A stretch of 43,247 bases of DNA from Elusimicrobiota bacterium (GTDB taxonomy: Bacteria > Elusimicrobiota > Elusimicrobia > Elusimicrobiales > UBA9959): NCBI GenBank assembly GCA_018829985.1, contig JAHJSU010000251.1, positions 1 through 43,247 on the forward strand, in the 5' to 3' direction. Position numbers and translations under genes: made by a program. Numbering within the stretch: position 1 is the stretch's first letter; the number at the start of each line of letters is the position of its first letter. The notes beneath the pieces are model-generated. The model did no database searches. It worked only from the letters and a program-made list of their open reading frames with translations, and had not been told where the DNA came from. Below, one piece after another: positions 1-35,733 of this stretch.

Positions 1-48
1 TATTCATCTGCGTCATCTGCGTTCCATGTATTACTGCTGAGCAGTTAC
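1..48. mobile_element. Right end of a MITE-like element cut by the window edge (core 'ATCTGCGTCATCTGCGTTC', end CTGAGCAGTTAC)
   Basis: Same core as the right arm of the element at 28441-28678; ends in the shared terminal repeat CTGAGCAGTTAC. Confidence 0.6.
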
Positions 49-824: not shown

Positions 825-912
825 CTATTCCCCTCCGGATCTCTAAAGTGCTAATTGTATTATACCATATGCCTGAATTTCCCGCTTTGACGTAAGTCAA
901 GGGGAAGGGAGA

Positions 913-1031
913 AGGGCTTTAGGGTTTAAGGGTCTTAGGTTTTTAGGGTAAGGCGGGCACTTTGTGCAGGGCTTCACTCTATCTCATCGTTGGGGTTCTC
1001 CACCCTAAAACCCTTAACACCTCAAACCCTT
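913..1031. repeat. Long imperfect palindrome, arms of GGGTTTAAGGGTCTTAGG type
   Basis: AGGGTTTAAGGGTCTTAGG... opposite CCTAAAACCCTTAACACCTCAAACCC; same family as 26145-26234. Confidence 0.7.
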
Positions 1032-3615: not shown

Positions 3616-6009
3616 ATGGGAAATCAAATCCTTTTTAACTGCGTAAAGCCCTCCAGATTCGCTTTAAACCCGCGCCGGGCCGATTATTACGATGTTTCGG
3701 ATATCATAATGAGCGGCCGGTACAAGGCGCCCGATGAGGATATAAAGGCGCTTGAAGATATAGACCTGATCTACAGAACGCTCGTCGCCGTGCTCTATAA
3801 TTTCGTTCCCGCCTCCGGCCATCCCGGCGGCAGCATCTCCTCGGGCAGGATAGTTCAGGCGCTGCTTTTCAGTTCGATGGATTATGATTTTTTCGAAGCC
3901 CAACGGGACGATAACGATATGATCGTCTACGCGGCCGGCCACAAGGCCCTGGGACTTTACGCGCTCTGGGCCCTGCGGAACGAACTCATCCGCGCGTCCG
4001 GCTCAAAGAACCTGCCGGAGCAGAAACTGCAGCTCAGGCTTGAAGATCTGCTGGGCTTCCGAAGAAACTCCGTAAACAATACCCCGCTTTTCAAAAAATT
4101 CAACGCCAAGGCGCTGGACGGACATCCGACGCCGCGGACCCCTTTTGTGAAGATCGCCACCGGAGCTTCAGGCGCGGGCGTGGGCGCCGGCGTCGGGCTG
4201 GCGTTCGCGGCCATGGACGCCTACGGCGGCCTCGCGCCGAAAGTAAATATCATCGAGGGCGAAGGCGGCCTGACCTCCGGCCGCGCGGCCGAGGCTATGG
4301 CATGCGCGGCGACCGCCCAGCTTTCAAACGCCGTTATGCACCTGGACTGGAACCAGGCGTCCATCGACTCCGACAGTGTCTGCCCTGAAAACTCCAGACC
4401 GGGAGATTATGTGCAGTGGTCGCCGGCCGAGCTGGCCTACCTCAACGACTGGAACGTCGTAAATGTTTCGAACGGTCATGATTTTTGTCAGATACTTACC
4501 GCCCAGAAATTCGCCGCCGACAGCGCCGCCAACAGACAGCCCACGGCCGTGGTGTACCGGACCGTCAAAGGCTGGAAATACGGCCTTGAAGGCAGGGCCG
4601 CCCACGGCGCCGGACACAAGTTCGCCTCCGACGGCTACTACTCCGCGACGGCCGAGTTTGAGCATGAATTTGGAGTTGCGATGCCCCGTGCGCGCCTTGA
4701 GGCGGACGCGCTCCTCCCCGACCCCGCTGCCGTCGAGAAATGTTTTTATGACACCTTGATGGCTGTAAGAAAAGCCGTTGAAAAAGCCCCGGCGCTGTCA
4801 AAATTCGCGCTGGGCAGGCTTGTTGCGGCCGCAGAAAGGCTTAACGCGCTGCGCAGGGCGCCCGGAGCCGGCGCCCCCAGGCCTGAAAAAGCCTATGCGC
4901 TGAAACCCGGCGAACCTCCGGCTGAGCTTAAATTCCCGCCCGGCGGAAAAATATCCCTGAGAGAAGCGCTCTCGCTGGGCCTTAATCATATCAATCGCGC
5001 CACCGGCGGCGCGGTCATAGCGCTGGCCGCGGATCTCTACGATTCCACCAGCGTGCGCCTTATCGGAAAAGGTTTCGGCGAGGGCTTCTACAATGCGGTT
5101 TCCAACCCGAAATCGCGGCTTCTCCCGGCGGGCGGCATCTGCGAGGACGCCATGGGCGCCGTCGCGTCCGGCATGGCGGGCTTCGGTCATCATATAGGCG
5201 TCACCTCTTCCTATGCCGCCTTTATAGCGCCGCTGGAGCATATTTCCGCCCGGCTTCACGTTATCGCTCAGCAGAACCGCGCGTTGCTGGATGGCCGGCC
5301 CTATAACCCGTTCATAATGATAAACGCCCACGCCGGCGCAAAGACAGGCGAGGACGGTCCGACGCACGCCGACTACCAGTCCCTGCAGCTTCTGGAAGGC
5401 AATTTTCCCGCGGGGTCGGTCATCACACTGACGCCCTGGGAACCGGCGGAACTATGGCCGCTGTTGGCCCGGGCCCTGGCTTTGAGGCCCGCTGTTATAG
5501 CGCCCTTTGTCACCAGGCCGCCCGAAAAGACCGTCGATCGCCGGGCCATGGGACTGCCCCCGGCCGAGGAAGCGGCCAAAGGCGTTTATTATATGCTCAA
5601 AGCCGGTCCAGGCAAACCCCGCCACGGCACCGTGGTGCTTCAGGGCAACGGAGCAGCAGCGGTCTTCGCGCACGAAATCCTGCCCAGGATACGGAAAGCG
5701 GGATTTAATCTGAACGTCCTGTACGTCGCCTCAAAGGAACTTTTTGAACTTTTAAGCGGCGGCGAGAGGGAAAAGATCTTTCCGGAAGAACTGGCCATGG
5801 AAGCCATGGGAATAACCGATTTTACCCTGCCCACCATGTATTACTGGGTCAGGTCCGGAGAAGGGATCGCCCGGACGCTTCACCCGTTTAAAAAGGGCCG
5901 TTACCCGGGCAGCGGCAGGGCTTCGGATGTGCTTAAAGACGCCGGCCTTGACGCCCGCGCCCAGTTTGACGCCGTAAAAGATTATGCGGAGTATATGGAG
6001 AAAAGGTAA
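3616..6009 (+). CDS. Transketolase-like protein (TPP-dependent)
   Basis: ASGHPGGSISSGRI, AAGHKALGLYALWA, TGASGAGVGAGVGLAFA, C-terminal pyrimidine-binding-like region GEDGPTHADYQSLQLL; ORF track starts at TTG 3595, ATG at 3616 preferred. Confidence 0.85.
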   Translation: MGNQILFNCVKPSRFALNPRRADYYDVSDIIMSGRYKAPDEDIKALEDIDLIYRTLVAVLYNFVPASGHPGGSISSGRIVQALLFSSMDYDFFEAQRDDNDMIVYAAGHKALGLYALWALRNELIRASGSKNLPEQKLQLRLEDLLGFRRNSVNNTPLFKKFNAKALDGHPTPRTPFVKIATGASGAGVGAGVGLAFAAMDAYGGLAPKVNIIEGEGGLTSGRAAEAMACAATAQLSNAVMHLDWNQASIDSDSVCPENSRPGDYVQWSPAELAYLNDWNVVNVSNGHDFCQILTAQKFAADSAANRQPTAVVYRTVKGWKYGLEGRAAHGAGHKFASDGYYSATAEFEHEFGVAMPRARLEADALLPDPAAVEKCFYDTLMAVRKAVEKAPALSKFALGRLVAAAERLNALRRAPGAGAPRPEKAYALKPGEPPAELKFPPGGKISLREALSLGLNHINRATGGAVIALAADLYDSTSVRLIGKGFGEGFYNAVSNPKSRLLPAGGICEDAMGAVASGMAGFGHHIGVTSSYAAFIAPLEHISARLHVIAQQNRALLDGRPYNPFIMINAHAGAKTGEDGPTHADYQSLQLLEGNFPAGSVITLTPWEPAELWPLLARALALRPAVIAPFVTRPPEKTVDRRAMGLPPAEEAAKGVYYMLKAGPGKPRHGTVVLQGNGAAAVFAHEILPRIRKAGFNLNVLYVASKELFELLSGGEREKIFPEELAMEAMGITDFTLPTMYYWVRSGEGIARTLHPFKKGRYPGSGRASDVLKDAGLDARAQFDAVKDYAEYMEKR

Positions 6010-6118
6010 CTACTCAGGTCTGTCGTCGTAGTGGCAGAGTTTACTCTGCCCAAAAAGGCAAAGCAAGCTTTGCCACTACAAAAAATACGTGAAAAATACG
6101 GAGAACCTGAGTAGTTAC
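6006..6118. mobile_element. MITE-like element E1 (113 bp), core type 'GTAGTGGCAGAGTTTACTCTGCC...GGCAAAGCAAGCTTTGCC'
   Basis: Ends GTAACTACTCAGG...CCTGAGTAGTTAC; perfect 8-bp direct repeat GAGAAAAG at 5998-6005 and 6119-6126; identical copy at 15209-15321. Confidence 0.92.
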
Positions 6119-11078: not shown

Positions 11079-11186
11079 GTTACTACTCAGCCACAAAGTC
11101 ACAAAGACACGAAGGAAATCAGACAATAAACCGTTTGATCCATAAACTTTCTTTGTGCCTTGGTGTCTTAGTGGCTGAGTAGTTAC
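11079..11186. mobile_element. MITE-like element E3 (108 bp), core type 'CCACAAAGTCACAAAGACACGAAGG'
   Basis: Ends GTTACTACTCAGCCAC...GTGGCTGAGTAGTTAC; perfect 8-bp direct repeat CTTAAATT (11071-11078, 11187-11194). Confidence 0.93.
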
Positions 11187-12283: not shown

Positions 12284-12290
12284 AAAATAG

Positions 12291-12411
12291 GGAAGGCTTA
12301 AGGCTAAAGGATAAAGGCTAAGGGAAGATTTTTTTTGTTTTCCAGTGTCTTTACCCTAATCCTTTAGCCTTCATCCTTTATCCTTCCAGAAATTGCCATG
12401 GCAATTTTCGG
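12291..12411. repeat. AGGATAAAGG-family palindrome followed by mini-hairpin CAGAAATTGCCATGGCAATTTTCG
   Basis: GGAAGGCTTAAGGCTAAAGGATAAAGG opposite CCTTTAGCCTTCATCCTTTATCCTTCC. Confidence 0.8.
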
Positions 12412-14250: not shown

Positions 14251-14397
14251 GTAACTGCTTAGGTAGCTAGGCTGCTGGACAGCTAAACTGCTAGACAGCT
14301 AGACAGCTAGGCTGCCAGAAAAATATTTTTTGTTTCTTCCTCTGCGAAGCTGCCTCGCCGTCTAGCCGCCTAGCCGCCTCGCTACCTGAGTAGTAAC
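14251..14397. mobile_element. MITE-like element E8 (147 bp) with GCTAG-type palindromic core
   Basis: Ends GTAACTGCTTAGGTAGC...GCTACCTGAGTAGTAAC; flanks TAACGTTC / CAACGCTC match 6/8. Confidence 0.75.
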
Positions 14398-15208: not shown

Positions 15209-15321
15209 GTAACTACTCAGGTCTGTCGTCGTAGTGGCAGAGTTTACTCTGCCCAAAAAGGCAAAGCAAGCTTTGCCACTACAAAAAATACGTGAAAAAT
15301 ACGGAGAACCTGAGTAGTTAC
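15209..15321. mobile_element. MITE-like element E2 (113 bp), appears identical to E1
   Basis: Same 113-bp sequence as 6006-6118; flanks GAAAATTG / GGAAATTG match 7/8. Confidence 0.9.
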
Positions 15322-17052: not shown

Positions 17053-17203
17053 CCGGCAATCGCTATAGCGATTAGCCGGAAGGCTAAAGGATAAAGGCTA
17101 AAGGATGAAGGAAAAGATAAGGGAAATATAAGTTTTTTTCTGCCCTTTAGCCTTTATCCCTCATCCTTTATCCTTCCTGGAAAATTTACCTAAATTTTCC
17201 AGG
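17053..17203. repeat. Composite repeat: mini-hairpin, AGGATAAAGG-family palindrome, mini-hairpin
   Basis: CCGGCAATCGCTATAGCGATTAGCCGG + AAGGCTAAAGG...CCTTTATCCTT + CCTGGAAAATTTACCTAAATTTTCCAGG. Confidence 0.85.
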
Positions 17204-18403
17204 TTAGTACAGCATGAAGAAATCGGAATCTTTCTTCTGACCGGGTTCCTGCGCCTTTTTCGGCCGGGCAGGCTCTTTTTTGGCGGGTTTTTTAGCTTTT
17301 TTCTGCGGCGGCGCTTTTTCGTCCTGGTTACGGTAGTGTACGGCCTTTTTATAGTCCCTGATGCGCCAGCCCGCGAATTTATAGCTGAAGGACACCTGCG
17401 AGGAATTGAAGACTTCATTGGCCAGGGACATGGCGAAATCCAGGGCGAAGCCCTCGTGATGCACGCCGACGCCCATGGTCAGGCCTTTATTGTCATCCAC
17501 GGCCTTGTAACCGAGACGCGCGTTGAGAATCTTCTGGAAATGGTATTCAAGTCCGCCCTTGAAATTTTTAAGACCCTCATTGGTATAGATGTCGTATTCC
17601 AGGGCCAGCAGGACGGACTGGTCCATTATGGTGGGCCGCTGCCAGGACAGGCCCAGCCGCATTACGGACGGCAGGGGATAGGTTTCCTTCAGATAGGTCA
17701 TGCCGCCGCCGTAATTTGAAAGAGAAGCGCCGCAGGCGAGCCCGAGCTTAGGTTCCACAAGGAGCCAGCCCGCGTCGAAAGCTATGGCCGAAGCGGAGTA
17801 TGTTTCCAGCAGTTCGGATTTTACGTACTTGGCCGAAAGGCCCAGGTATTGATCTATCCTGGCTTCATAACCTTCGATTTTCATTTCCTGGGAATATACC
17901 CTTTCGCCGTAGCTCAAAGAAAATACTTTTGTGCCTTCGGCGTCCATGCTCCTGGAAAAAATGGTGCCGTCGTCATTTATGCGGCGGTACGTGAAATCAC
18001 CGCTCTGCGAGAATATGGCCGAAACCGCGATGCCGGGTTTGTCAAGGCCGATAAGGCCGTTGATCGGCAGAGGCATGCCAAAACCCAGGAATTGGAGCTT
18101 TGCGTCGGCAAAGCCGGAAAGATACGTCGCCGAAATCTCGGGGAGATAAAGCCGGCCCAGGCCGGCCGGATTATAAGTCACGGAATAAATATCGTCCGCC
18201 ACCGACACGAAACCGCCGCCCATGCCCATGGCCCTGGGGCTGATATCGGTCTTTAAGACCTGGACGGCGGTGGAACCGGGCCCGCCCGCAAAGACAGGGG
18301 CCAGGGGATAGAGGATAGAGGCGAGGGCGAAGACAATAGAAAGCGCTGCGCGAACGCTTTCCCCTCTTCTGTGTTGACTGTTGTTCATATAGCTGCCATG
18401 CAT
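17204..18403 (-). CDS. PorV/PorQ family outer-membrane protein
   Basis: PRAMGMGGGFVSVADDIYSVTYNPAGLGRL; beta-barrel-like periodicity; C-terminal Lys/Pro-rich tail. Confidence 0.82.
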   Translation of the reverse strand: MHGSYMNNSQHRRGESVRAALSIVFALASILYPLAPVFAGGPGSTAVQVLKTDISPRAMGMGGGFVSVADDIYSVTYNPAGLGRLYLPEISATYLSGFADAKLQFLGFGMPLPINGLIGLDKPGIAVSAIFSQSGDFTYRRINDDGTIFSRSMDAEGTKVFSLSYGERVYSQEMKIEGYEARIDQYLGLSAKYVKSELLETYSASAIAFDAGWLLVEPKLGLACGASLSNYGGGMTYLKETYPLPSVMRLGLSWQRPTIMDQSVLLALEYDIYTNEGLKNFKGGLEYHFQKILNARLGYKAVDDNKGLTMGVGVHHEGFALDFAMSLANEVFNSSQVSFSYKFAGWRIRDYKKAVHYRNQDEKAPPQKKAKKPAKKEPARPKKAQEPGQKKDSDFFMLY

Positions 18404-21969: not shown

Positions 21970-22077
21970 GTAACTACTCAGCCACTAAGACACCAAGGCA
22001 CAAAGAAAGTTTATGGATCAAACGGTTTGTTGTCTGATTTCCTTCGTGTCTTTGTGACTTTGTGGCCGAGTAGTAAC
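21970..22077. mobile_element. MITE-like element E4 (108 bp), core type 'CACAAAG', inverted relative to E3
   Basis: Ends GTAACTACTCAGCCAC...GTGGCCGAGTAGTAAC; perfect 8-bp direct repeat CCTGTTCC (21962-21969, 22078-22085). Confidence 0.93.
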
Positions 22078-23549: not shown

Positions 23550-23733
23550 CCGAAAATTGCGGTTAACGTCTCCCCCCCAAGTTTTGAGGGTAGCCATAGC
23601 AATTTTCGGAAGGCTAAAGGATAAAGGCTTAAGGATAAAGGAAAAACACTGGAAGCCAAAGAGATTATTCCGCCCTTTAGCCTTTATCCCTCATCCTTTA
23701 GCCTTCCCGAAAAATTCAACTAAATTTTTCGGG
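23550..23733. repeat. Composite repeat: mini-hairpin, AGGATAAAGG-family palindrome, mini-hairpin
   Basis: CCGAAAATTGC...GCAATTTTCGG + AAGGCTAAAGG...CCTTTAGCCTT + CCCGAAAAATTCAACTAAATTTTTCGGG. Confidence 0.85.
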
Positions 23734-23814
23734 TTAGCTGCCGCTTGTGAAAGAGCTTGTATTATTATAGAATTTATTTTATCAGCCGGGTAATTTAAGT
23801 TCAGGACGCCGTTA

Positions 23815-26138: not shown

Positions 26139-26144
26139 CGGAGA

Positions 26145-26234
26145 GGGTTTAAGGGGTTTAGGGTCTTAGGGTTTTAGGGTAAAAAAATTCACCTTTACCC
26201 TTAGCCCCTCAAACCCTTAACACCTTAAACCCTA
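26145..26234. repeat. Long imperfect palindrome, GGGTTTAAGGGG family
   Basis: GGGTTTAAGGGGTTTAGGGTCTTAGGGTTTTAGGG opposite CCCTTAGCCCCTCAAACCCTTAACACCTTAAACCC. Confidence 0.85.
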
Positions 26235-26275
26235 AACTCCAGACGAATATTAATGGCTCTGAACTCTGCTTCCTT

Positions 26276-27301: not shown

Positions 27302-28437
27302 TGCTACGGTTTCTGGTCTCCGTCCTTCTCTCACTTTCCTTCCCCGCCTCGGCCGCGGATTCCGGCGACGGGAACGGCGCCGTCATAAGAGTGGCAATCG
27401 CCAGGAATACGCCGCGGTTCACGCTCAAGACCTCGAACAGGGTGTACGCGATCGAAATCAGAACCGGGCAGAAATACATGCTGCTTGAAAACTCCTCTTA
27501 CGAGATACGGTATATCGATCCTTCCCGGCTGGCGCTGGCGGGGACTACGCTTGAGTCCCCGGTAAAGCTCCTTTCCTCCGACGGCGGCGAGAAAGTGAAG
27601 CTTAACGGCCGCTTCTATAAAGGCGACATTTTCATTAAGACCGCGCCGGTCGAAAAGCTGGAGGTCATAGAACAGCTTTCCATTGAGGATTATCTTTGCG
27701 GAGTGCTGGGGGTGGAGATGAGCCCGGACTGGCCTCTTGAAGCGCTTAAGGCGCAGGCGGTGGCCTCGCGCACCTACGCCCTTAAGAACATAAATCCGAA
27801 AAAGGATTATGACCTCACGGACGGCGCGGAGATGCAGGTTTATAGCGGCGCCGCCGCCGTAAATTCAAGGATTATCAAAGCCGTAAATTCCACCAGGGGC
27901 GAAGTGCTCACCTATAAAAGGAAACTGATAACCGCTTTTTTTCACGCCTGCTGCGGCGGGCACACGACAAGCGCCGGCGCCGCGTGGAGCGGAGCCAGCA
28001 TTAAACCCCTGGCCGGCGTTAGGGACCCTTTTTGCTCGAATTCACGGCATTTCCGCTGGGATTTCTATATCACGGCCAGAGACCTGCTGGCTTTTATACA
28101 GAAACGCGGCTCCACGGCGCTGAAGATAAAAGGCGTGCGGATATATAAAAAGGACCGCTCCGGCCGCGCGCGGACTTTGCGGTTCACGACAGATGCCGGC
28201 TCCGTTACCGTTCCGGCTTCCGACCTGCGCAAACGCTTCGGCGCCTCCGACATAAGGAGCACGTTCATTACCCGCGTAACTCGGGCCGGCGGCGGCTATA
28301 AATTCAAAGGCAAAGGCTGGGGGCACGGCGTGGGCATGTGCCAGGACGGCGCCAGACAAATGGCGCTGAACGGCAAAAACTATAAAAGGATACTCAAACA
28401 CTATTATCCGGGCGCCGCAATAGACGATGTAAAATAA
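27301..28437 (+). CDS. SpoIID/LytB domain protein
   Basis: IEDYLCGVLGVEMSPDWPLEALKAQAVASRTYAL; GWGHGVGMCQDGARQMALNGKNYKRILKHYYPG. Confidence 0.92.
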   Translation: MLRFLVSVLLSLSFPASAADSGDGNGAVIRVAIARNTPRFTLKTSNRVYAIEIRTGQKYMLLENSSYEIRYIDPSRLALAGTTLESPVKLLSSDGGEKVKLNGRFYKGDIFIKTAPVEKLEVIEQLSIEDYLCGVLGVEMSPDWPLEALKAQAVASRTYALKNINPKKDYDLTDGAEMQVYSGAAAVNSRIIKAVNSTRGEVLTYKRKLITAFFHACCGGHTTSAGAAWSGASIKPLAGVRDPFCSNSRHFRWDFYITARDLLAFIQKRGSTALKIKGVRIYKKDRSGRARTLRFTTDAGSVTVPASDLRKRFGASDIRSTFITRVTRAGGGYKFKGKGWGHGVGMCQDGARQMALNGKNYKRILKHYYPGAAIDDVK

Positions 28438-28440
28438 AAA

Positions 28441-28678
28441 ACAGCTGCTCAGCTATTAAACCATAGAACGCTGATAACGCTGATTTTTAGTAATTACTCA
28501 GCCACTAAGACACCAAGGCACAAAGAAAGTTTATGGATCAAACGGTTTATTGTCTGATTCCCTTCGTGTCTTTGTGACTTTGTGGCTGAGTAGTAACGAT
28601 TTTTATGATTAAACATGATCTGCGTCCATCACATTCATCTGCGTCATCTGCGTTCTGGTATTGCTGTTGAGTAGTTAC
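28441..28678. mobile_element. Outer MITE-like element E5b, core type 'GAACGCTGATAACGCTGAT / ATCTGCGTCATCTGCGTTC', split by E5
   Basis: Degenerate left end ACAGCTGCTCAG, right end TTGAGTAGTTAC; flanks AATAAAAA / AGTAAAAA match 7/8. Confidence 0.75.
28490..28597. mobile_element. MITE-like element E5 (108 bp), CACAAAG core, nested in E5b
   Basis: Ends GTAATTACTCAGCCAC...GTGGCTGAGTAGTAAC; perfect 8-bp direct repeat GATTTTTA (28482-28489, 28598-28605). Confidence 0.93.
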
Positions 28679-28692
28679 AGTAAAAACAAGAA

Positions 28693-31128: not shown

Positions 31129-31236
31129 GTAACTATTCAGCCACTAAGACACCAAGGCACAAAGAAAGTTTATGGATCAAACGGTTTGTTGTCTGATTTC
31201 CTTCGTGTCTTTGTGACTTTGTGGCTGAGTAGTTAC
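31129..31236. mobile_element. MITE-like element E6 (108 bp), CACAAAG core
   Basis: Ends GTAACTATTCAGCCAC...GTGGCTGAGTAGTTAC; perfect 8-bp direct repeat TATTAAAC (31121-31128, 31237-31244). Confidence 0.93.
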
Positions 31237-34039: not shown

Positions 34040-34750
34040 GTGCGCAAGATAAAAAAGTTCAAGATTCCCATCTACAGCTACGACATCTTGCGCAAGGCCA
34101 AAAAGCGTAAAATAGATCTGTTCGCTTTAGGGCTGTCCGCGCAGGAAAGCGCCAAAGAATATATAGCCTCGATTGCCGCCGCCATAGAGCCCGCCGTTGT
34201 TTTTGATTTCCTGGGACCGGAAGACCCGCTTGCCAAAGGTCCGGGGCCTCTTGAAGGCGGGGCGCTCACCCTGGGCGTCATCACTTTAGGCGCCGCTTTC
34301 GCGGACAAGCTAGGGGGCATTAAGGAACCCGGCCTTTTCAGGCTGGCGGAAACGGCCGCGCTGGTATTCGGCGACACGGGCCTTAAAGTCATAACCGAAC
34401 TTATAGCGCAGGAAACCGGAATGGAAGGCTTTGAACCCGGCGGCGCCGAGTACCTGTACGCCTGCCCGGAGCCTGAAGCGGAAAACCGGCCGGCGGCCTG
34501 CCCGCCTCCGCCAAACAGTCCGGCGGATCCGCCTCCGGCGGAAAGCGACCAACCGGCGCCGGTTTGCACACCCGGCAGACGGGCCGGCACGAACCCCGGG
34601 ATCATAGCGTCGGCATTAGCAAGGCTCCAGGCCGATAAAATAGGGGTCAGATTTGAGAACGGAGCGCTCAGCCCGAAATATTCCTTCCTTTTCGCCATCC
34701 CCTGGCTGTCCAGGAAAAAGAAGAAAATATCCGCCGCTCCCCGGAATTGA
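34040..34750 (+). CDS. Hypothetical protein with repeat-derived Pro-rich segment
   Basis: GTG-start ORF; segment ACPPPPNSPADPPPAESD encoded by a palindrome. Confidence 0.55.
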   Translation: MRKIKKFKIPIYSYDILRKAKKRKIDLFALGLSAQESAKEYIASIAAAIEPAVVFDFLGPEDPLAKGPGPLEGGALTLGVITLGAAFADKLGGIKEPGLFRLAETAALVFGDTGLKVITELIAQETGMEGFEPGGAEYLYACPEPEAENRPAACPPPPNSPADPPPAESDQPAPVCTPGRRAGTNPGIIASALARLQADKIGVRFENGALSPKYSFLFAIPWLSRKKKKISAAPRN

Positions 34751-34865
34751 AAGGCTAAAGGATAAAGGCTGAAGGATGAAGGAAAAGATACAACGGTTTT
34801 TTCGCCCCTTAGCCTTTATCCCTAATCCTTTATCCTTCCCGAAAAATTCAATTGAATTTTTCGGG
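34751..34865. repeat. AGGATAAAGG-family palindrome plus mini-hairpin CCCGAAAAATTCAATTGAATTTTTCGGG
   Basis: AAGGCTAAAGGATAAAGGCTGAAGG opposite CCTTAGCCTTTATCCCTAATCCTTTATCCTT. Confidence 0.85.
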
Positions 34866-35534
34866 TTTATCCACCGCCTGGCGGCTCTGGCCGTGTGTCT
34901 TTACCTGAGGCTGGTGGGGTTTACTACTTCCATTAAGTTCCACGGCGCGTCCGTTCCTCCGCCTCAGGCTGACGCTGAAGCCGCGGAGGCCGCGCCCTCG
35001 GGAGTTGGGCAGGTCATATACGTCATCTGGCACTGCCAGCAGGCCTTCCTGATTTACGCCCATCGCGGCCGGGGCATAACCGCGCTGGCAAGCAGAAGCA
35101 GGGACGGGGAATATGCGGCGGAGCTGCTGAAGCGTTTCAATTATGTCCTGGTGCGCGGCTCCACCAGTTCCGGCGGCCTGCGGTCCCTGATCCAGCTTAT
35201 CCAATGCGCCCGGGACGGCCGCACGCTGGCCATCACGCCGGACGGCCCGAAGGGCCCGGCCCGCAAAGTGCAGAAAGGCGCGGTTTACCTGGCCCGGAAA
35301 ACGGGCCTGCCTGTAATAGCCATAGCCGGCGCTCTGACTAATAAGATTTCGGCCCGCTCCTGGGACCGGTTCCAGATACCCCTCCCGTTCGGCAAAGCCG
35401 TTATCGCCTATTCGGCGCCGTTTTACGTCGCGCAAGCGTCCAGCCTTGAAGAAAAGGCGGCGGAGCTTGAAAAGATCCTGAATGAAACCGAACTTAAGGC
35501 CGAAGAACTGCTTAAGGCCGGGAACAACAGTTGA
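34776..35534 (+). CDS. Lysophospholipid acyltransferase-like protein (DUF374)
   Basis: IYVIWHCQQAFLIYAHRGRGITALASRSRDGEYAAELLKRFNYVLVRGSTSSGGLRSL; TPDGPKGPARKVQKGAVYLARKTGLPVIAI; first ATG lies in a repeat, start uncertain. Confidence 0.88.
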   Translation: MKEKIQRFFRPLAFIPNPLSFPKNSIEFFGFIHRLAALAVCLYLRLVGFTTSIKFHGASVPPPQADAEAAEAAPSGVGQVIYVIWHCQQAFLIYAHRGRGITALASRSRDGEYAAELLKRFNYVLVRGSTSSGGLRSLIQLIQCARDGRTLAITPDGPKGPARKVQKGAVYLARKTGLPVIAIAGALTNKISARSWDRFQIPLPFGKAVIAYSAPFYVAQASSLEEKAAELEKILNETELKAEELLKAGNNS

Positions 35535-35733
35535 TAAGTGGGGAACGGCAGGAGATAAAGTTGTTAGAGTAAATACTCTCTTACTTAGTTACTACTCAGC
35601 CACAAAGTCACAAAGACACGAAGGAAATCAGACAACAAACCGTTTGATCCATAAACTTTCTTTGTGCCTTGGTGTCTTAGTGGCTAGTTACCTTACTTAT
35701 CAACTTGTCAACCAGTCAAATTATCAACTCCTG
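35531..35733. repeat. TTGATAAGTGG/CAACTTGTCAACCAGTC-family palindrome interrupted by E7
   Basis: Same words as 15331-15402; E7 with perfect 8-bp flanking repeat lies within it. Confidence 0.7.
35588..35691. mobile_element. MITE-like element E7 (104 bp), CACAAAG core, 4-bp deletion in right terminus
   Basis: Ends GTTACTACTCAGCCAC...GTGGCTAGTTAC; perfect 8-bp direct repeat CTTACTTA (35580-35587, 35692-35699). Confidence 0.92.

What the first reader, a model, noticed from the sequence alone, without database searches (positions are those of the whole stretch)
28441..28678. Nested element: E5 inserted into the older E5b
E5 has a perfect 8-bp duplication (GATTTTTA) lying inside E5b, whose own flanks are 7/8 and whose left end is degenerate (ACAGCTGCTCAG). 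This gives relative ages and shows different core classes moved at different times with the same ends.
Basis: seen in the sequence. Interest (0 to 1): 0.72.

Follow-up and report, generated by a model that had tools for sequence, protein, structure and literature searches.

The report
Nested mini-transposon multiplied as one unit
A tiny jumping DNA element really did land inside another with the same ends, but long ago in an ancestor: the pair has since been copied to about 30 places as one unit, and the inner element is a shrunken, gene-deleted version of a cassette that carries a widespread nuclease-like gene (GxxExxY).

Summary
E5 (28490-28597) has a perfect GATTTTTA duplication and lies inside E5b (28441-28678), whose flanks match 7/8. 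The implied history is only half right. The same E5/E5b junction occurs 31 times in this genome, and ten copies are identical over 136 nt with ten different right flanks. So the nesting happened once, in an ancestor, and the compound then multiplied. The perfect inner duplication is inherited and does not date this locus. Four uninterrupted E5b copies with their own duplications, and a second nested type at GATTAAAC, show that nesting did occur. Hybrid units (one E5 end plus one E5b end) with perfect 8-bp duplications suggest the ends are interchangeable. E5 is an internally deleted GxxExxY (PDDEXK_3) gene cassette: 101 of 108 bases align to the intact cassette at C15. Across 62 GxxExxY loci from many phyla, 55 carry inverted arms of short tandem units. 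The only coding elements with the same 12-bp ends that contain a transposase are IS66-family elements in a same-genus genome. IS66-type mobilisation in trans is therefore the best model, but it is inferred; no IS66 gene was found in this assembly.

The parts
28441..28678 (+). Compound element: E5b interrupted by E5
   Evidence: full compounds (both junctions) also at C10, C133, C166, C343; right junction in 31 places
28490..28597 (+). E5: 108-nt miniature element, internally deleted GxxExxY cassette
   Evidence: 101/108 identities to cassette C15:902-1376 with one large internal deletion
28482..28489 (+). Inner 8-bp duplication, left copy GATTTTTA
28598..28605 (+). Inner 8-bp duplication, right copy GATTTTTA
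28441..28489 (+). E5b left half, with degenerate end ACAGCTGCTCAG
   Evidence: intact left ends in C343, C166
28606..28678 (+). E5b right half, ending TTGAGTAGTTAC
28433..28440 (+). Outer flank left AATAAAAA
   Evidence: 7/8 match to the right flank
28679..28686 (+). Outer flank right AGTAAAAA
   Evidence: 7/8 match to the left flank
11079..11186 (-). Solo E5, TSD CTTAAATT perfect
21970..22077 (+). Solo E5, TSD CCTGTTCC perfect
31129..31236 (+). Solo E5, TSD TATTAAAC perfect
35588..35691 (-). Solo E5 with one damaged end
1..48 (+). Right-half fragment at the contig start, variant of the amplified compound
6006..6118 (+). Other core class, same ends, TSD GAGAAAAG perfect
15209..15321 (+). Same class as 6006-6118, TSD 7/8
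14251..14397 (+). Other core class (period-8 AGACAGCT arms), same ends, TSD 6/8
38365..38544 (+). Core class of the second GxxExxY cassette (C92: GCGCAAAG arms), same ends, TSD 7/8

Best explanation
28441-28678 is one copy of a compound miniature transposon. In an ancestor, an E5 element (a miniature made by internal deletion of a GxxExxY gene cassette, or a less deleted form of it) inserted at GATTTTTA in the loop of an E5b element. The compound then multiplied as one unit by transposition events that make 8-bp duplications. Because all four ends carry the same 12-bp signal (GTAACTACTCAG), a transposase can pair any two inverted ends, which also yields hybrid units running from an E5 end to an E5b end. 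The transposase is most likely an IS66-family enzyme acting in trans. Shown: nesting, recurrence of the junction, shared ends, 8-bp duplications, hybrid units, derivation of E5 from the cassette. Inferred: identity of the transposase, direction of evolution, mechanism of the internal deletion.
For: 31 identical junctions genome-wide, control 0; 10 loci identical over 136 nt across the junction with different flanks. Compounds with their own outer duplications: C166 AAAAATGA perfect, C343 6/8, window 7/8. Uninterrupted E5b with duplications: C110 GATTTGTA, C283 AAAATATG, C241 GAATTTAA. Second nested type at GATTAAAC in C64 and C301, with perfect outer duplications. Hybrid units with perfect duplications: C90:4938-5127 TATATATT, C277:1619-1791 CTTCAATC. 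E5 is 101/108 identical to the C15 GxxExxY cassette with one large deletion, and the C343 inner element is a less deleted form. IS66 plus DruA element with the same ends in the same-genus genome (G214:C92, 2436 nt), IS66 remnants with the same ends at C84 and C9, and a DruA relative beside the left end at C36; IS66 makes 8-bp duplications (PMC3281130).
Against: No IS66 gene in this genome's assembly or in the Dehalococcoidia, Desulfobacteraceae and other genomes with related cassettes; multi-copy IS elements often drop out of MAGs, but absence is not proof of dropout. The G214 IS66 elements themselves show no clear 8-bp duplication. Many compound copies are cut by contig ends inside E5, so only six own-genome loci show the left junction under a strict pattern, plus three more read from fetched stretches (C28, C36, C59). 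Some hybrid units (C21, C36) lack duplications.
Confidence: 0.8

Rival explanations
1. Simple local nesting: E5 inserted into an older E5b at this very locus, so inner and outer duplications date two events here.
For: Perfect inner and imperfect outer duplication; uninterrupted E5b exist elsewhere.
Against: The same junction at the same base and orientation in 31 places; identical 136-nt stretch in 10 loci with different flanks.
Confidence: 0.04
2. Hotspot: GATTTTTA in the E5b loop is a preferred target and E5 inserted there many times independently.
For: The second nested type at GATTAAAC also lies in the E5b loop; another class is nested inside a different element (L278, TSD AAAAAAAC).
Against: E5 and E5b sequence variants travel together (10 identical, 4 identical in a second group); same orientation throughout; C166 has its own perfect outer duplication.
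Confidence: 0.06
3. The GxxExxY nuclease itself, not an IS66 transposase, moves the cassettes and their miniatures.
For: Apart from the IS66/DruA elements of one relative, the only coding elements found with these ends are the GxxExxY cassettes; the gene is kept next to inverted arms across phyla.
Against: Elements with quite different cores (6006-6118 and others) share the same 12-bp ends and 8-bp duplications; GxxExxY loci elsewhere mostly lack these ends and show no duplication beyond their arms; IS66 elements with the ends exist in the same genus.
Confidence: 0.1

Closest known systems
Bacterial MITEs (miniature inverted-repeat transposable elements)
   Same: Short (about 80-300 nt), non-coding, terminal inverted repeats, target duplication, high copy number, internally deleted from a larger element.
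   Different: The larger element is not the IS itself but a passenger cassette (GxxExxY gene with arms); nested compounds and hybrid-end units are themselves mobile.
MIC (mobile insertion cassette, as IS231-MIC231)
   Same: IS-type ends flank a passenger gene without a transposase: C15 (475 nt) and C92 (544 nt) GxxExxY cassettes.
   Different: Inferred IS66-type ends rather than IS231; passenger is a PDDEXK_3 protein bracketed by period-8 inverted arms.
IS66 family
   Same: 8-bp duplications; an IS66 TnpC gene (NF033517 equivalog) lies between GTAACTACTCAG-type ends in G214.
   Different: That element carries DruA beside TnpC; E5/E5b carry no recognised IS66 sequence beyond the 12-bp ends.
REP/BIME palindromic repeats with RAYT
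   Same: Dispersed intergenic palindromes in high copy number.
   Different: Clear 8-bp target duplications, which Y1-type RAYT elements do not make (own knowledge).

Membership tests
Bacterial MITE | Terminal inverted repeats and short non-coding body | tested here: met
Bacterial MITE | Fixed-length target duplication | tested here: met
   8 bp, 38 perfect pairs at span up to 400 nt
Bacterial MITE | Derived from a larger element by internal deletion | tested here: met
   Met for E5: 101/108 to the C15 cassette. For E5b no parent was found
Bacterial MITE | Shares ends with an autonomous element in the same genome | tested here: inconclusive
   Not found in own genome; found in the same-genus genome G214
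IS66-mobilised element | 8-bp target duplication | tested here: met
   IS66 value in PMC3281130
IS66-mobilised element | Ends begin GTAA | tested here: met
   GTAACTACTCAG; that IS66 ends start GTAA is own knowledge, not confirmed in a held paper
IS66-mobilised element | Transposed by an IS66 transposase | not testable with these tools
   Needs an experiment
GxxExxY (TIGR04256 / PF13366) cassette | Intact parent encodes a GxxExxY protein over the cut-off | tested here: met
   C15 128.2 bits, C92 120 bits, cut-off 35
REP/RAYT | No target duplication | tested here: not met
   8-bp duplications present

The most novel reading that the evidence does not exclude
GxxExxY genes flanked by inverted arrays of 8-10-nt units form a cross-phylum class of selfish cassette, and its deletion products are the source of many dispersed palindromes (CACNAAG and similar) in unrelated bacteria. 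In this genome they have been captured by IS66-type ends, which lets them, and nested compounds of them, spread.
Probability: 0.45. Interest if true: 0.75.

Novelty: new variant of a known kind. Interest (0 to 1): 0.55.

Why it matters
It corrects a tempting inference: a perfect inner duplication inside a decayed outer element does not mean local, recent nesting once the compound itself is mobile. It also gives an origin for one of the palindromic repeat families: deletion of a gene cassette whose gene (GxxExxY, uncharacterised PD-(D/E)XK superfamily) keeps inverted arms of short tandem units in most loci tested across phyla. That makes the function of a common orphan family, and the source of such repeats, testable.

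Tried and rejected
IS66 gene in own genome by PF03050: none. Parent gene of the E5b (ATCTGCG) core: 341 phylum genomes gave hits only in the own genome and in gene-less palindromes of G018; 80 viral-contig loci with the motif held no GxxExxY gene; unresolved. Relatives of the GxxExxY protein in viral contigs: none. Solved structure of a GxxExxY relative by sequence: none. Target duplication outside the arms of GxxExxY loci in general: not convincingly above mispaired controls. Literature on GxxExxY, PF13366 or these repeat sequences: nothing relevant in the held library; no held paper joins DruA and IS66.

Full report
Observation. E5 occupies 28490-28597 with a perfect GATTTTTA on both sides; E5b occupies 28441-28678, with flanks AATAAAAA/AGTAAAAA (7/8) and a left end ACAGCTGCTCAG that departs from GTAACTGCTCAG at three of its first four bases. 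The end GTWACTRCTCAG (up to 1 mismatch) occurs 627 times in the 3.53-Mb genome against 10 for the reversed control. In 0.69 Mb of it, 51 inverted end pairs have an 8-bp duplication of at least 6/8, 38 of them perfect at spans up to 400 nt. The elements are real.

Is the nesting local? No. The E5-to-E5b right junction (GTRRTAAC|GATTTTTATGATTAAAC) occurs 31 times, control 0. Of 29 copies read in full, 10 are identical over 136 nt across the junction and have 10 different right flanks; 4 more form a second identical group. The left junction is also present at C10, C133, C166, C220, C343 and C360, and left junctions are visible at C28, C36 and C59. C166 has its own perfect outer duplication AAAAATGA, C343 6/8, the window 7/8. 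The compound therefore moved as a unit after a single nesting event.

Did nesting happen at all? Yes. Uninterrupted E5b with their own duplications exist at C110, C241 and C283 (perfect) and C1 (6/8). A second nested arrangement, E5 at GATTAAAC a few bases further on, is present at C301 and C64, both with perfect outer duplications; these two share site and orientation and may be one event. A different class is nested inside yet another element at C50 (L278:2615-2727, inner TSD AAAAAAAC perfect).

Interchangeable ends. C90:4938-5127 runs from the E5 left end to the E5b right end with perfect TATATATT; C277:1619-1791 runs from a compound left end to the E5 right end with perfect CTTCAATC. The simplest reading is that a transposase paired one outer and one inner end. 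Other hybrids (C21, C36) lack duplications.

What E5 is. The own genome has two GxxExxY genes (TIGR04256; PF13366). At C15:902-1376 the gene lies between GTAACTACTCAG-CCACTAAGACACCAGGGCACAAAG and its inverted counterpart, duplication CGCAATTG/CGTAATTG 7/8; at C92 a second gene lies between GCGCAAAG-type arms with the same outer ends and perfect CCGGCTTT, the core class of window element 38365-38544. E5 aligns to the C15 cassette at 101 of 108 bases with one large deletion that joins the start-codon region to the last codons; the C343 inner element is a less deleted 148-nt form (139/148). The near-identical cassette and deletion derivatives of several sizes (about 107 to 259 nt) also occur in a MAG labelled Dehalococcoidia, with one perfect duplication (TGTCAGAT, L179), and an intact cassette with a 7/8 duplication in another MAG (L124). 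MAG contamination cannot be excluded, so horizontal transfer is not claimed.

Generality of the arms. In 62 GxxExxY loci from the own phylum and many others, 55 have inverted flanking arms scoring above the 99th percentile of 539 shifted controls (medians 35.5 and 17; Mann-Whitney p about 2e-33). The arms are periodic, mostly at 8-10 nt (individual arms). The unit sequence differs by locus (CACNAAG, CGCAGAG, GATTACACA, CACGGAT and others). Caveats: the loci are related genes, not independent draws, so the p-value overstates the evidence, and the shifted windows come from the same contigs. Outside the few loci with GTAAC-type ends, no duplication beyond the arms stands out convincingly from mispaired controls.

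Which enzyme. Among 59 family genomes only G214, the same-genus genome searched, has IS66 genes. At G214:C92 an IS66 TnpC (NF033517 equivalog) with a DruA-like gene lies between GTAACTACTCAG and GTAACTGCCCAG (2436 nt). C84 carries a 1202-nt deletion form with both ends, C9 a remnant with the right end, and C36 a DruA relative beside the left end. G214 also has gene-less elements with these ends, one with a perfect 8-bp duplication (L228). IS66 elements make 8-bp duplications (PMC3281130). Against: no IS66 gene in the own assembly or in four other cassette-bearing genomes, and no clear duplication around the G214 elements. The step is inferred.

Unresolved. The parent of the E5b core was not found; the ATCTGCG palindrome occurs without a GxxExxY gene in one distant relative and in phage contigs. 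Why C343 holds a less deleted inner element at the same site is also open (later deletion or gene conversion). The confidence of 0.8 is for the compound-unit history; for IS66 as the mobiliser alone I would put it at about 0.65.

Noticed in passing
window 6006-6118 and 15209-15321: A 113-nt element class (GTCTGTCGTCGTAGTGGCAGAG core), 98% alike, with the same ends and 8-bp duplications; one of the commonest classes in the stretches sampled.
   Followed up: partly
window 12290-12390, 17078-17207, 23591-23737, 34732-34869: Intergenic inverted arrays of period-7 units (AAAGGCTAAAGGAT), similar in build to the GxxExxY arms; a parent gene was not sought.
   Followed up: no
window 905-1030 and 26144-26241: Period-8 TTAGGGTT/CCCTAAAA inverted arrays in intergenic DNA.
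   Followed up: no
C241:17835-18095 (L208): A 113-nt class element and an uninterrupted E5b sit side by side sharing three copies of GAATTTAA, as if one inserted at the duplication of the other.
   Followed up: partly
L123-L181 (MAG JAUYDP01, labelled Dehalococcoidia): Many cassette fragments of the same GxxExxY element with a graded series of internal deletions.
   Followed up: partly
L362:1490-2290: Phage contig with CGCAGATGACGCAGAT/ATCTGCGTCATCTGCG palindromes between genes, same motif as the E5b core.
   Followed up: no
window 38850-43103: A 1417-aa open reading frame on the minus strand with internal repeats (spacings of 117 to 240 nt).
   Followed up: no
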